From Planctomycetales bacterium 10988 (GTDB taxonomy: Bacteria > Planctomycetota > Planctomycetia > Pirellulales > Pb10988), in contig CP043547.1 in NCBI GenBank assembly GCA_009664345.1, forward strand, positions 2,818,709-2,882,708: a stretch of DNA of 64,000 nucleotides. The letters run 5' to 3'. Numbering within the stretch: position 1 is the stretch's first letter; each line of letters begins with the position of its first letter. A model generated the notes under the pieces. It saw only the letters and a program-made list of their open reading frames with translations. It was not told the DNA's origin and made no database searches. Made by a program: the position numbers and the translations under genes. Positions 11,824 to 18,277 of this stretch are shown here, in pieces.

Positions 11824-13032
11824 TTAGCTCCGCAAGTCCGTCAATTGCGGGGGAGCCAAGGCATCCATGAAGACCGACATTTGCGGGGCATCTCGCATAA
11901 AATTAGGAGAAGGTTGAATCGAGAGCGGATAATCGCCCCACCATTCTCCCCCGGCCCAATAACAGGTATCGAGACCGGATTGCTTGGCCAATTGCAGAAA
12001 ACGATCCATCAATTTGATCCAGCGAGGATCAGATTGCGGCACGCCATATTCCCCGATAAATCCTTGCACATTGTTGCGTTCACACCAACGGCGGAAGGGG
12101 GCAAGCCGTCGCTCCGGCCGATCTTCGATCCGAGAAGTCCGATTGGCCTCGGAATCATACGAGAGTTGATACTTGCCGGAGAAATTGGAATCAAAATAGC
12201 AATGGGCTTCATAAACAACATTGTCCGCAGGGTCGTCGATCCAGGCCGATTGACCATTGAAGGCTTCCCAGCGATAAGAACTCGACCAGCCATCGCTAGA
12301 GATCACCACCCGAGTGCGTTGGTCGGCTCGCCGGATGGCATCAACGACAGTCTGGGAAATCTCATGCCAATTGCTACTTCCCAGATCGTGAGGCTCGTTC
12401 ATGATGCCGTATCCGACAATGGCGGGGTGACCCTTGAAGATTTTCGCCAAACCCTGCCAAACGCTTGCTAAATGATGCCGAGAAACGAGCACTTTGCCAT
12501 CCACGGGCTGATCAATAACGCATTCCTGAATTTGACCGCGATAAGCCATTTTGTAACGGGCATAGTTGTGCATATCGAGTACGACCGCACATCCTTCTCG
12601 CGATGCCCAATCCGCAAAGGTACGAATTCGGCTCAACTCTCCATAATCCAACTTACCCCCAACCGTTGGTTGGAGGCGCTCCCAGGAGAAAGGCAACCGA
12701 ATAAGGGAGAGGCCTTTATTGGAGAAATAATGCAAGGAAGATTGGCTATTGTAGGTAAAATCAATGCCAAAAGTTCCAGGATTTTGATTTGAGAAATCCG
12801 GCTTATGCGTGCCGAATTCAGGCCCAGCCAGATTGACGCCATGGCCCATTGGCCCTTTCGTCGGGACGTCGTGATCCATATTGCTCACAAAGGTCAACAT
12901 ATCATCGCGAAGCGGTGCGAGAGGAGGAGCAAGTAGAGATTGCTCACAACCGAGGCTCAGTCCCAGAGCGGGAAGGCTCGCAGCTCCAAGTGAGCGGCGT
13001 AAAAAGTTGCGTCGATTGAGTTGTGTGGACAT
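11824..13032 (-). CDS. Tat-exported glycoside hydrolase family 5-like cellulase
   Basis: About 402 residues. The ATG at 13032 is preferred over the one at 13056 because it gives a clean twin-arginine leader (RRNFLRRSLGAASLPALGLSLGC) preceded by a GAGGG box. The cysteine after the leader could also make it a lipoprotein. The mature part is a GH5 (beta/alpha)8 barrel: LSLIRLPFSWERLQP, VVLDMHNYARY, the acid/base motif YGIMNEPHDLG with its N-E-P, and the nucleophile motif GFIGEYGVPQSD. A W-A-G-G-E-W-W near the end lines the substrate cleft. Expected activity is endo-beta-1,4-glucanase or a related mannanase. Its divergent neighbour across the 1.5 kb gap is a cellulose-synthase-like gene, and synthases of this kind are often paired with such a glycosidase. 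Confidence 0.87.
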   Translation of the reverse strand: MSTQLNRRNFLRRSLGAASLPALGLSLGCEQSLLAPPLAPLRDDMLTFVSNMDHDVPTKGPMGHGVNLAGPEFGTHKPDFSNQNPGTFGIDFTYNSQSSLHYFSNKGLSLIRLPFSWERLQPTVGGKLDYGELSRIRTFADWASREGCAVVLDMHNYARYKMAYRGQIQECVIDQPVDGKVLVSRHHLASVWQGLAKIFKGHPAIVGYGIMNEPHDLGSSNWHEISQTVVDAIRRADQRTRVVISSDGWSSSYRWEAFNGQSAWIDDPADNVVYEAHCYFDSNFSGKYQLSYDSEANRTSRIEDRPERRLAPFRRWCERNNVQGFIGEYGVPQSDPRWIKLMDRFLQLAKQSGLDTCYWAGGEWWGDYPLSIQPSPNFMRDAPQMSVFMDALAPPQLTDLRS

Positions 13033-14577
13033 GGCTAAACCCTCAATGGAATCCATTATTTAGGATGGCCGTTGATCTGTTGCGAAAGAAAGGAACAACA
13101 GGGCCTTTAGTCTTCGAGGTAAAATTTTAAATGTTCAAGTACGTTACCTGCCAAACGATCTTCTTGAACTAGCCAAGCAAGCATCTATCCAAGAAACTCG
13201 CCTATGTATGGGAACGATCAATCCATTTCCCAGAAGAAAATAAAACAACAAATATCATAAAGTAGATCGACTAGGAACTCTCGATAGCTCAAAAAAAATA
13301 TAGAAAAGAGTTAAGAGCTATGAGGATACTATCTACACTTTATGTATATCTTAACTGTATTTTACAAGACCCTAAATTCAAATTTCCTTAAAACAATAAA
13401 AATTGATTAAAAGCGTAAGATTAGGGAAATTGGGTCTCATTTGAATAGCTAGGAGAATCGATACGTCACGATGAAGGTTCGAAAACCCCCCATATAGGAG
13501 ATGGACATATATTTAATCAGTCTCCCGGATCTTATCTCCAATTGCAAGAAAAATTTATATTTTTTCCCGTAAAACAGACTTGTTCATTTCGCGCTTGATA
13601 TAAGTTCAATTTTAATATTGAGTTAGAAATAGGATTGTCTGATGAAAAAATACGACTCTTTAAAAAAATATCTGCGAAATGGAGGAAGACTTCTCACTCC
13701 TATCGTTTAAGCAAAGAAGAGAATGGCAAGGTTGTTTTTCCTGGGAAAACTAAAGATTGTTGATCCGATTGATAAGAAATGAATAGGTCACATTTCCTCG
13801 ATCTGTTTGAGGAAACAGAAAAGTTATCAAAGAAACAGATATTTGATGTTGATTTTCCTAGGTGCCTGGGAGATAATGAGGACGATCCTCTTCAAAAAAG
13901 AGGGAATTACCCCTAAAAGATTCTCGATATCCTCTCCCTTATGGCTAGCATCGTTTTTCTCTATCCTTGAGTAACCTGCCGAAATCAACTCAAGCTAGAA
14001 GGAAAATAGCTAGGCATCAATTATTGAGAATCACATCAAGGGCTCTGGAAAGTTTCCCAGTACGGGGATAGATCACTCGCTGGCTTTCAATCCAATTTCC
14101 GCAACAAATCATGGTTAAATTCTAGTTTTTCATGGTTTTATGGAATGGGGAGAATAAAGCTGTTGATCTATTGAGGAAATATTTTTTAGAAGTCATTTTA
14201 CGAGTTCCCAGAATTAAGCTAGCCTTTGGCTGACGACTATCGCAACGACGGAAAACTGTTGGGGAAATAATCCAAGGGCAATATGGTTATTTCCTGAGGC
14301 AATGCGTAGTTGAACCTTTTTTTAGAAATTTTGGATTATGAGATCACTTGGCACATAATTAGCAATGTGTTTCGTGTGAATTAGGTGACTTTGTGTCCTT
14401 TACTATTTTTCTACAAAATTTCAGGTTGTGAAAGATTGCAGAAATAATACTCATAAAGGAATGACTAGGGCTGCCTGCAAGATCGTACCTTTTGACTTCA
14501 TGACCTCTCCCAAGTTCCAAATTTTCCTTATTCGCAGAGAAATTCGTACACCCGCCTATTTTGATCGGCACTTACCT
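13033..14577. other. 1.5 kb AT-rich region without convincing genes
   Basis: Lies between the divergent GH5-like gene and the cellulose-synthase-like gene. Stops are frequent in all frames. The only small frame with a ribosome-binding-like AGGA is a 22-codon peptide at 13642-13710. No tRNA, CRISPR or c-di-GMP riboswitch core was found. The length suggests a long regulatory leader or a decayed gene. The open frame of the next gene extends leftward to a GTG at 14428 without family resemblance. Confidence 0.5.
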
Positions 14578-16251
14578 ATGCAAAAACAAACCCGTCAATT
14601 TTTTATCCTATTGGCTTTGTTTAGCGCCGCCGTCTACTTGGTCTACCGGACCTTCTTCACGCTGAACTTGGTAACTTGGTACAGCAGCTTCGTATCCATT
14701 TCACTTTTGGCTGCTGAAATGTACGGCATCTTCCTGATGTCGCTCTATTTCTTTCAAGTCTGGGATACTGACGAACCGCCCCAACAGCCGATTCCAGAAG
14801 GAGTTAAGGTCGATGTCTACATTCCGACCTATAACGAAGACGAGCATCTCCTTCGTGGAACGATCGTCGCCGCCAAGGCGATGGATTTCCCGCACAAGAC
14901 GTATGTTTTGGATGATGGGAATCGAGAAAATATCAAAGCCCTCGCCGAAGAAATCGGCGTAGATTATATCGCCCGCGCGGACAACCTTCATGCGAAGGCC
15001 GGGAATCTCAATAATGCTTTGGATATTACCGAAGGCGAACTGATCGTGATCTTTGATGCGGATCACGTGGCGAAAAAGAACTTCATTACTCGGATTATTG
15101 GCTATTTCAACGACCCGAAAATGGCCTTCGTGCAGACTCCGCACTCGTTCTATAATTTCGATAACTTCCAAGCCACATTAAACTTCAAGAAAAATGAGTA
15201 CTGGGAAGAGGGACAGCTCTTCTACAATGTGGTCCAACCTGGCAAAAACCGTTGGAACGGGGTCTCCTTTTGTGGAAGTGCCGCCATGTTCCGCCGCTCC
15301 GCATTGGAGGAAGTTGGCTTAATTGCTACCGAAACGAACACGGAAGATATGCATACCGGGCTGCGTTTGCATGCCGCTGGATATAACTCTTTGTTCATTA
15401 ATGAACCCCTTATCATTGGTCAAGCAGCGACCGACGTGACCACTTTCAACTCACAACGTGTGCGTTGGGGGGAAGGAAACTTGAGTATTATGGCTCACGA
15501 CAATCCTCTGACCATCAGAGGACTGACGTTGCCACAACGGCTCTGTTACATGGGGTCCATGCTCAGCTGGACGACCGGGGTTCCGAAATTAGTTCTCTAT
15601 GTTACCCCGATTTTGATGCTCTTTACCGGAGTGGCTCCAGTACGGAAGTTCACCAGTACCCTCGGGGTCATTACCCTCTTTTACCTCTTCTCGACCTGGG
15701 GAGCTGTGAAGGCTGCTGGGAATGGCTATGGAAATATTTGGGCCATTGAAGTGACCGCGATGGCGAACTTCTGGACTCAAATCCGTTCCACTTGGCGTGC
15801 TTTGGTGAAGCGAGCCCAACAAAGTTTCGTGGTGACCTCGAAACGGGGGCGTCAATCCAACAGCTTGATCAAGCAGATCATGCCACACATCCTCCTGATT
15901 GTGGCGAGCCTCGCTGCAGTCTTTTGGGCCTTGATTCGTTACTTCTATGGATTTACCCATGATTTGCTCGGTTTGAGTATTGGTTCTGGTTTGGTCCTGG
16001 TCCATGTCTTGTTGGCCTTCGATGTGTTGCGTCGAAGTCTCAAAGGGCGTGACTTCCGGTTTTCCTACCGTCACCCCAGCGACACGGTCCACGTTCACTA
16101 TCGTGGGTTGAATATACTTGACACCGAAGAACCGCTTGTCGGGCAAGCCGCTGCGGTAGATATCAACGAATGTGGTTTGGGATTAACGGCCTTTGAAAAA
16201 ATTCCTTCCGGGACAAAGTTGGACCTCTTACTCCAAGGGGGGGGGAATTGA
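14578..16251 (+). CDS. Cellulose-synthase-like GT2 glycosyltransferase (BcsA-like), frame ends in a PilZ domain
   Basis: A membrane GT2 synthase. Two N-terminal spans precede the catalytic region with VDVYIPTYNED, YVLDDGNREN, the D-x-D site VIFDADHVAKKNF, the T-E-D motif (TNTEDMHTG) and the Q-x-x-R-W motif (SQRVRWGEG), all hallmarks of processive beta-glycan synthases such as BcsA. Four or more spans follow, then the start of a c-di-GMP-binding PilZ domain (RHPSDTVHVHYRGL, AAAVDINECGLGLTAFEKIPSG). The frame breaks off inside PilZ at nine consecutive G (16237-16245), and the rest of PilZ continues in the next frame. Skipping one G would join both into about 1,230 residues. Start uncertain: the ATG at 14578 directly precedes the first span, but the frame is open to a GTG at 14428. 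The sugar product is inferred, not shown. Confidence 0.85.
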   Translation: MQKQTRQFFILLALFSAAVYLVYRTFFTLNLVTWYSSFVSISLLAAEMYGIFLMSLYFFQVWDTDEPPQQPIPEGVKVDVYIPTYNEDEHLLRGTIVAAKAMDFPHKTYVLDDGNRENIKALAEEIGVDYIARADNLHAKAGNLNNALDITEGELIVIFDADHVAKKNFITRIIGYFNDPKMAFVQTPHSFYNFDNFQATLNFKKNEYWEEGQLFYNVVQPGKNRWNGVSFCGSAAMFRRSALEEVGLIATETNTEDMHTGLRLHAAGYNSLFINEPLIIGQAATDVTTFNSQRVRWGEGNLSIMAHDNPLTIRGLTLPQRLCYMGSMLSWTTGVPKLVLYVTPILMLFTGVAPVRKFTSTLGVITLFYLFSTWGAVKAAGNGYGNIWAIEVTAMANFWTQIRSTWRALVKRAQQSFVVTSKRGRQSNSLIKQIMPHILLIVASLAAVFWALIRYFYGFTHDLLGLSIGSGLVLVHVLLAFDVLRRSLKGRDFRFSYRHPSDTVHVHYRGLNILDTEEPLVGQAAAVDINECGLGLTAFEKIPSGTKLDLLLQGGGN

Positions 16252-18277
16252 GGTTTCTTGTAAGGGCGAAGTTCGTCACTGTACAGAAATCATCAATAAT
16301 TCCTTCGCCAAAAAGGGAGATGCCACCGCCTATCGAGTAGGGCTCAAGTTCGTCGAACTGACAGGAGAGCAACTGGCAGGCTTGTGGGAAATCTCCATCC
16401 AATATGCCGTGCAACGACAATATATGAAGTTCCGCGGCGACCGGATTGATAAAGTCAAAGGTGGCGTCATGAGCCTGCTTTGGCCTTTTCCTTCCAAAGC
16501 GGGTGGGCGTGGATATCACCTTCCGGTGCATCTGAAGCCTCACGACGAAGATGCGGAACCGGATTCCAAACTCGATTTGAATCATACTTTGCCCGATTCG
16601 GAAGAATTTATCGGGGTCGGAAGTGTGACGGAAAAAATCTCCTCGACCTCGATGCAAGCTCTGCTTTATGATCGTTGCCCCATTGGTCAAATGGTCGAGT
16701 TCATCCTGGGAACTCCTTTCGGAGAAGTCAAAGGGTTGGCTCGCGTGACTGGGCATCAAGATCGTTTGGTGGGTACTTTGCCTCTGGTCAATCATAAATT
16801 TGAGTTCGTCCGATTCCTCGGACCGACGCGTTCCCGCTTGAACTCGCTCCTAACGATGGGTGAGCAAAAGAAAATTATCGATTCTTTGGTTTACGTTCCG
16901 CTCAAACAACGTTGGCCTGTCATGCGACCGACGATGTTCGTCGTGGCACCAACGGTGGTCCTCTTGATCATCTTGACGGCGATGTTTCACTTCACGCACT
17001 ACGATGGCATTTTGTTAAATCAAATTGCCCGTGGAGACTTTGCCGCTTCCCCAGAAGACATGCAACGTATCGAACGCCTGGTGGAAACGAAATTGAATCA
17101 ACCCGGTGTCGGTGAAGAAGAGCTTTGCTTGCTCCGCGATGCCATGTTGAAAATCAATCGACCGAAGGAAGCCGCCGAACTCGTCAAACGCGTGACGGAG
17201 ATCGCCCCGGAAAATCTCGATATTCGTTTGGCTCATGCCAACAACTTGATGGACGCCGGTAAGTACGACGAGGCGGAAAAAGAATTTCAACATCTATTGG
17301 ATGAGTTCGAAAGCCGCTACGTGCGAGACGAAACGCGAGTCTTGGGTTATCTGAGTGCTGCCCGAAACAGTATCAAGCGAAATCAGCTCAATGAAGCCAT
17401 GGCCCGTTTTGGTCGGCTGATGGAAGTCGTGCCGGATAATGTCGAAGTTCGCATGGAATTCGCCCGCGTCTTGCTGGCAGCCCAAGAACCGGATCGAGCT
17501 TTGGATGTGCTGGAAGAAGCCGATCTGGATAGCCGAAGCCGTGAGTCCTTGGTCTTGATGGCGAATATTTATGCTGCGAAGAAAGATTTCCCGGCTGCCG
17601 AAAGTGTTTTGCAAGAAGCCTTGGCTATCGCACCGAACGATCCAGAAATTCGAACCATGGCCGCCGACATCGCCAGTTGGATGGGTAACTATGGCAAAGC
17701 CCTGGTCATGTATGAAGAGTTGTTGGAAAACAATCCTGATGATCTAGACCTTCAAATGAAATATGGTCTGACCTTGCTTTGGGATCGTAAGTATGCCGCT
17801 GCCATGGAGCAAATCACTCCCTTGGCAAGCATGACCGACAGCGAGAAATATGGGGAAAACCTGTGGATGGACTTCCTCAACGCCGCCGCTGGATCGCCGG
17901 TGCTGACGAGACCTGCGGAGAATTTACTGGCACGGATCGATCGTGAAGTGAAAACGGATTCCTTCAAGGATATTACCTTGATGACCCGCCTGGCGGATGC
18001 TTATATCAATCATGGGAATGCCTTCCGAGGTCGTCAACTACTGGAACGATCGCTTCGTTTGGATGAAAACAATGCGGAAGTTCGACTTCGCTTGGCGGAC
18101 ACCTTGCACAATATGGGACAGTTCGAGCTGGCGGATCGTCATTATCAATTGTTGATCGGGCGAGCGGGAGTCACACCAAAAAACTCCCCTGGGGCGATCG
18201 CATCGGGGGAGTCCCGAAGAAAGATTGAAGCCCTCTTTACCCGACTGAATCAACTCGAAAACATTCGTACTCAATAG
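16193..18277 (+). CDS. PilZ C-terminal part, membrane segment and TPR protein (second half of the BcsA-like gene)
   Basis: Up to 694 residues from an ATG at 16193 that overlaps the previous frame and has no ribosome-binding site. The first real homology is the end of a PilZ domain (GGIEVSCKGEVRH, YRVGLKFVELTGEQLAGLW) that completes the one broken off in the preceding frame. It probably does not start independently. Next comes a mixed region with a second PilZ-like patch, a membrane span near residue 245 (FVVAPTVVLLIILTAMFHF), and from residue 270 to the end a series of TPR-like 34-residue helix pairs (AGKYDEAEKEFQHLL, AAQEPDRALDVLEEADL, GNYGKALVMYEELL). In cellulose systems TPR repeats usually sit in the periplasmic partner BcsC; here they appear fused to the synthase side. 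A bidirectional terminator follows. Confidence 0.8.
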   Translation: MKKFLPGQSWTSYSKGGGIEVSCKGEVRHCTEIINNSFAKKGDATAYRVGLKFVELTGEQLAGLWEISIQYAVQRQYMKFRGDRIDKVKGGVMSLLWPFPSKAGGRGYHLPVHLKPHDEDAEPDSKLDLNHTLPDSEEFIGVGSVTEKISSTSMQALLYDRCPIGQMVEFILGTPFGEVKGLARVTGHQDRLVGTLPLVNHKFEFVRFLGPTRSRLNSLLTMGEQKKIIDSLVYVPLKQRWPVMRPTMFVVAPTVVLLIILTAMFHFTHYDGILLNQIARGDFAASPEDMQRIERLVETKLNQPGVGEEELCLLRDAMLKINRPKEAAELVKRVTEIAPENLDIRLAHANNLMDAGKYDEAEKEFQHLLDEFESRYVRDETRVLGYLSAARNSIKRNQLNEAMARFGRLMEVVPDNVEVRMEFARVLLAAQEPDRALDVLEEADLDSRSRESLVLMANIYAAKKDFPAAESVLQEALAIAPNDPEIRTMAADIASWMGNYGKALVMYEELLENNPDDLDLQMKYGLTLLWDRKYAAAMEQITPLASMTDSEKYGENLWMDFLNAAAGSPVLTRPAENLLARIDREVKTDSFKDITLMTRLADAYINHGNAFRGRQLLERSLRLDENNAEVRLRLADTLHNMGQFELADRHYQLLIGRAGVTPKNSPGAIASGESRRKIEALFTRLNQLENIRTQ
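16237..16245 (+). repeat. Homopolymeric G9 tract at the frame switch
   Basis: Nine G in a row inside the PilZ coding region. With nine, the upstream frame meets TGA at 16249-16251; with eight, both frames fuse without loss of domain sequence. It may be a phase-variable tract, a frameshift or slippage site, or a sequencing error. Confidence 0.85.

What the first reader, a model, noticed from the sequence alone, without database searches (positions are those of the whole stretch)
16193..16300. G9 tract splits a cellulose-synthase-like PilZ domain; candidate phase-variable switch
The upstream frame stops in the PilZ domain at TGA (16249-16251) right after nine G; the next frame continues the same PilZ domain. 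A change from nine to eight G gives one long synthase-PilZ-TPR protein. The sequence around the tract is otherwise consistent with a single continuous gene. The possible readings are on/off phase variation of matrix production, ribosomal or transcriptional slippage, or a sequencing error in a homopolymer.
Basis: partly seen in the sequence, partly recalled or inferred. Interest (0 to 1): 0.7.

Follow-up and report, generated by a model that had tools for sequence, protein, structure and literature searches.

The report
Cellulose-synthase-like gene split at G9 tract
A planctomycete gene for a cellulose-synthase-like enzyme is cut in two in this genome record by one surplus G in a run of nine; it is one unbroken gene in all 19 relatives checked, so this is probably a chance one-base change or a miscounted base rather than an evolved on/off switch.

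Summary
G9 lies at 16237-16245; the upstream frame stops at TGA 16249-16251 inside a PilZ domain, and the next frame (open 16187-18277) continues the same protein. Relatives show that this is one gene: 19 of 19 homologous loci that span the site are uninterrupted, and none has a G run there. The rest of the pathway looks intact: a GH5 cellulase sits beside the gene, as in 7 of 7 relatives examined, and a homologue of the relatives' TPR partner is whole elsewhere in the genome. The break is therefore recent, reversible or false. Nothing found here speaks for an evolved switch. Coding G/C runs of 8 or more are about seven-fold rarer than synonymous shuffling predicts, no short (2-6 nt) SSRs were found in 2.06 Mb, MutS and MutL are intact, and the tract is private to this genome. 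No other frame break at a run of 7 or more lacking its own start codon was found in 2.06 Mb (scan recall about 64%). A genuine sporadic slip and a consensus error at a G run are nearly equally likely; reads are needed to choose. Phase variation in the strict sense is possible but unsupported.

The parts
14578..16251 (+). 5' part of a cellulose-synthase-like gene: GT2 catalytic domain with DADH, TED and QRVRW motifs, membrane segments, first part of PilZ with RFSYR...DINECG; ends early at TGA 16249-16251 (open frame begins at 14389; start codon not certain)
16237..16245 (+). G9 tract at the frame break; one of four G/C runs of 9 or more in the 6.65-Mb genome
16187..18277 (+). open frame holding the rest of the same protein: second half of PilZ, linker, membrane segment and TPR repeats up to the natural stop
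11824..13056 (-). GH5 cellulase with a signal-like N-terminus, divergent neighbour of the synthase; an orthologue sits beside the synthase in all 7 relatives examined

Best explanation
This is one cellulose-synthase-like gene (GT2 synthase, PilZ c-di-GMP-type sensor, membrane segment, TPR tail) that is out of frame in the record because a run of G holds one base too many. The broken state is a singleton: either a recent sporadic replication slip in the sequenced clone (about 45%) or a consensus error in one of the longest G runs of the genome (about 40%). If the nine G are real, translation stops in the middle of the PilZ beta-barrel. The catalytic domain would be made without a complete PilZ domain or TPR tail, and matrix synthesis would probably be lost or deregulated in that clone until a reverse slip. 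Shown: single ancestral gene, exact position of the break, intact surroundings. Inferred: loss of function, and that no dedicated switching mechanism exists.
For: All 19 spanning homologues are continuous (open frames 1169-1265 codons where complete) and none has a G run at the site. The PilZ match of a relative spans residues 519-626, with the junction at about 581. Both halves keep strong coding scores and no second defect. The GH5 neighbour is kept and a homologue of the relatives' TPR partner is whole at G000:C1:4675786-4678980, so the pathway is not decaying. Runs of 8 or more G/C in coding sequence are 6 against about 46 expected. A survey of 1,106 genomes expects BLAST-validated singleton frame transitions to be sequencing errors rather than genuine indels (PMC3711429).
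Against: Tracts of this length do slip at high rates, and surface glycosyltransferases are typical phase-variable genes, so a functional switch cannot be excluded. The record shows few errors elsewhere: no other break at a run of 7 or more without its own start codon in 2.06 Mb, and 26 of the other 32 long G/C runs lie inside one uninterrupted coding frame, which weakens the error reading.
Confidence: 0.8

Rival explanations
1. Evolved phase variation: slipped-strand mispairing in the G tract switches the long synthase on (eight G) and off (nine G) at high frequency, and the switching is under selection.
For: Tract inside the coding sequence at a position where length decides the frame; surface-polysaccharide function; no other lesion in the gene. 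Precedent at shorter tracts: the seven-base poly-G tract of M. tuberculosis glpK (PMC11898584).
Against: Tract absent from all 19 relatives; coding runs of this kind depleted about seven-fold; three other runs of 9-10 lie in whole housekeeping-type genes; no short SSR loci of units 2-6 in 2.06 Mb; MutS and MutL intact.
Confidence: 0.12
2. Consensus or assembly error: the chromosome has eight G and a whole gene.
For: Longest class of G run in the genome; gene otherwise perfect and conserved; singleton break. One further apparent frame break in a giant ORF without a start codon (L122:7334) shows the record is not free of such sites.
Against: Very few homopolymer-linked breaks in 2.06 Mb at about 64% recall; the other three runs of 9 or more are in frame.
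Confidence: 0.4
3. Transcriptional slippage or ribosomal +1 frameshifting on the tract restores part of the full-length product.
For: A G9 run is a plausible slip site; [quoted passage not shown]
Against: Requires +1 (or -2) movement, not the common -1; neither tract nor frame transition is conserved in relatives; no conserved stimulator could be tested.
Confidence: 0.05
4. Two separate genes, synthase and TPR protein, with the second translated from its own start or by coupling.
For: Both frames are long and overlap by 65 nt.
Against: The split falls inside one PilZ domain; only a TTG lies near the start of the second frame; 19 of 19 relatives have one frame.
Confidence: 0.02

Closest known systems
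BcsA/CelA bacterial cellulose synthase (TIGR03030)
   Same: GT2 core with DADH, TED and QRVRW motifs, membrane segments, C-terminal PilZ with RxxxR...DxNxxG; GH5 cellulase neighbour
   Different: 400.7 bits against a curated cut-off of 699.1; extra membrane segment and TPR tail fused behind PilZ, as in its planctomycete relatives; product polymer unknown
Poly-G slipped-strand phase variation (Neisseria lgt genes, M. tuberculosis glpK)
   Same: homopolymer of G inside a gene whose length decides the frame
   Different: no length variation shown, no conserved tract, and no family of short-repeat contingency loci in this genome's sampled third
Singleton frame transitions catalogued by GeneTack (PMC3711429)
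   Same: single frame break validated by homologues, not shared by relatives
   Different: nothing of note

Membership tests
Slipped-strand phase-variable (contingency) locus | repeat tract whose unit change shifts a reading frame | tested here: met
   G9 at 16237-16245; frames +1 apart
Slipped-strand phase-variable (contingency) locus | length variation among cells or strains | not testable with these tools
   no reads and no genome of the same genus or family held
Slipped-strand phase-variable (contingency) locus | tract kept in related genomes | tested here: not met
   0 of 19 spanning homologues has a G run there; all belong to other families or more distant groups
Slipped-strand phase-variable (contingency) locus | long repeat tracts in excess of expectation in the genome | tested here: not met
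   6 coding runs of 8 or more against about 46 expected; no SSR of units 2-6
BcsA/CelA cellulose synthase | GT2 catalytic motifs | tested here: met
BcsA/CelA cellulose synthase | score above the curated equivalog cut-off of TIGR03030 | tested here: not met
   400.7 bits against 699.1; the unbroken relative also only 399.4
BcsA/CelA cellulose synthase | PilZ domain behind the synthase core | tested here: met
   Pfam PilZ in the unbroken relative L087, residues 519-626; the window's halves each fall below detection; motif RFSYR...DINECG present
Programmed ribosomal frameshift or transcriptional realignment | frame transition conserved in homologues | tested here: not met
   19 of 19 in one frame

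The most novel reading that the evidence does not exclude
A planctomycete switches a PilZ-containing cellulose-like matrix synthase on and off by slippage in a G8/G9 tract, with the off form leaving a catalytic domain cut free of its c-di-GMP sensor and TPR tail.
Probability: 0.12. Interest if true: 0.5.

Novelty: already known. Interest (0 to 1): 0.2.

Why it matters
If the tract varies in living cells it would be a simple matrix switch in a phylum for which the few literature searches made here found no reported example (a narrow search of open-access papers). If not, the gene should be annotated as one synthase with a frame defect, not as two genes, and the organism should not be called matrix-negative on this record alone.

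Tried and rejected
Two-gene reading: rejected by 19 unbroken homologues. Old pseudogene: not supported (no second lesion, GH5 kept next door, a TPR-partner homologue whole elsewhere). Mismatch-repair loss as a cause of tract instability: MutS (887 codons) and MutL (673 codons) open frames are intact. A second synthase copy that would make this one dispensable: none; the only other own-genome match is weak, 25% identity over 164 residues. A sister species with the same tract: none found in whole genomes or genome contigs. Promoter or terminator between the halves: matches no more frequent than in shuffles. Internal restart: no ATG or GTG of the second frame near the tract.

Full report
Observation. 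The nine G at 16237-16245, the stop at 16249-16251 and the continuation in the next frame are as described. The upstream frame is open from 14389 and the downstream frame from 16187 to 18277. The downstream frame is +1 relative to the upstream one, so a run shorter by one base, or longer by two, would join them. A hexamer coding score trained on this genome, without any knowledge of the tract, puts the frame switch at 16240.

What the gene is. The upstream part matches GT2 and cellulose synthase families and TIGR03030 CelA at 400.7 bits, below its curated cut-off of 699.1. It carries the DADH, TED and QRVRW motifs and the PilZ signature RFSYR...DINECG. The downstream part holds the rest of PilZ, a membrane segment and TPR repeats. 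In the unbroken relative L087 the Pfam PilZ match runs from residue 519 to 626 and the window's junction falls at about residue 581. A GH5 cellulase lies next to the gene here and in all seven relatives examined. In several relatives a large TPR protein lies on the other side; it is absent from this neighbourhood, but a homologue with a whole frame is present at G000:C1:4675786-4678980.

One ancestral gene. A search of 396 genomes of the order found homologues in eight other genomes, and a scan of genome contigs gave ten more loci, titled Planctomycetota or uncultured bacterium. Nineteen loci span the site: eight complete frames in seven genomes (L087-L094), one cut by a contig end (L096) and ten from genome contigs. 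All nineteen are uninterrupted, none has a G run there, and with X at the junction the window aligns gap-free for 41-43 residues before and 16-76 after it. The second frame is therefore not a separate gene.

Is the tract special? The 6.65-Mb genome holds 33 runs of eight or more G or C: 29 of eight, three of nine and one of ten. Nine of the eights are copies of one repeated element. Of the other 32 runs, 26 lie inside a single open frame with a coding score above 0.2 per codon and six lie outside such a frame; no other run shows two strong same-strand frames meeting at it. The other runs of nine and ten lie in frames that read as a sodium:alanine symporter-like protein, an aminotransferase-like protein and an NqrF-like protein (names from my reading of the sequence, not searched). 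In 1.53 Mb of coding sequence, runs of eight or more are 6 against about 46 from synonymous shuffling, and G runs of nine or more are 1 against 9.7. The genome thus avoids such runs. No tandem repeats of units 2-6 passed the thresholds in 2.06 Mb. MutS and MutL are intact.

How clean is the record? In 2.06 Mb, 91 same-strand frame hand-overs were found, most with an ATG or GTG start of the second gene, as in ordinary neighbouring genes. The window is the only one at a run of seven or more that lacks such a start; one A7 case (L230) has an ATG 11 bases on. A control in which one base was added to runs of five or more found 67 of 105. One other suspicious break, in a giant ORF pair, has only a run of five C at the likely junction (L122:7334). 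Homopolymer errors are thus rare in this record but cannot be excluded at one site in the longest class of runs.

Judgement. The state seen is a singleton break with no shared tract. The GeneTack survey expects BLAST-validated singletons to be sequencing errors rather than genuine indels (PMC3711429). A real sporadic slip is about as likely here because the record is otherwise clean; I put the two at about 45% and 40%. Evolved phase variation has the right anatomy but no positive evidence (12%). Precedents for functional tracts of similar or smaller length exist, such as the seven-base poly-G tract of M. tuberculosis glpK (PMC11898584), so the read-level test is worth making. Slippage that rescues expression would need +1 movement and is not supported by conservation (5%). 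The figures are my judgement, not computed, and the real-indel and phase-variation readings overlap.

Limits. No genome of the same genus or family is held, so neither tract polymorphism nor selection on the gene could be measured. Raw reads were not available. Only about a third of the genome could be scanned for frame breaks.

Noticed in passing
L122:7334 (G000:C1 about 1707334): Two giant same-strand open frames (2504 and 2079 codons, both possibly cut by the segment ends) meet with a 190-nt overlap and no start codon for the second; the likely junction is at a run of five C. Probably one giant coiled-coil-like gene with a frame break, real or an error.
   Followed up: partly
L124:13733, L131:6994, L168:8177, L169:3628, L226:17842: Perfect heptanucleotide tandem repeats of 28, 17, 8, 23 and 5 copies (TATTCCC, GGTTTCA, CCGAACA, GGGTTCA, GTGTTCG), mostly between genes or at gene ends. 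Seven-base units could act as length-variable elements.
   Followed up: partly
L193:1255 and 11128, L200:3841, L203:5652, L225:8458, L227:8966; C8 copies in L078, L084, L085, L102, L105, L106, L110, L115, L116: A repeated element with two overlapping frames (177 and about 321-350 codons, 94-nt overlap, no ATG/GTG for the second), which looks like an insertion sequence with orfA/orfB frameshifting; its second frame appears to carry the recurrent C8 run.
   Followed up: partly
window 13057-14388: About 1.3 kb without a convincing gene between the GH5 cellulase and the synthase, longer than in the relatives examined.
   Followed up: no
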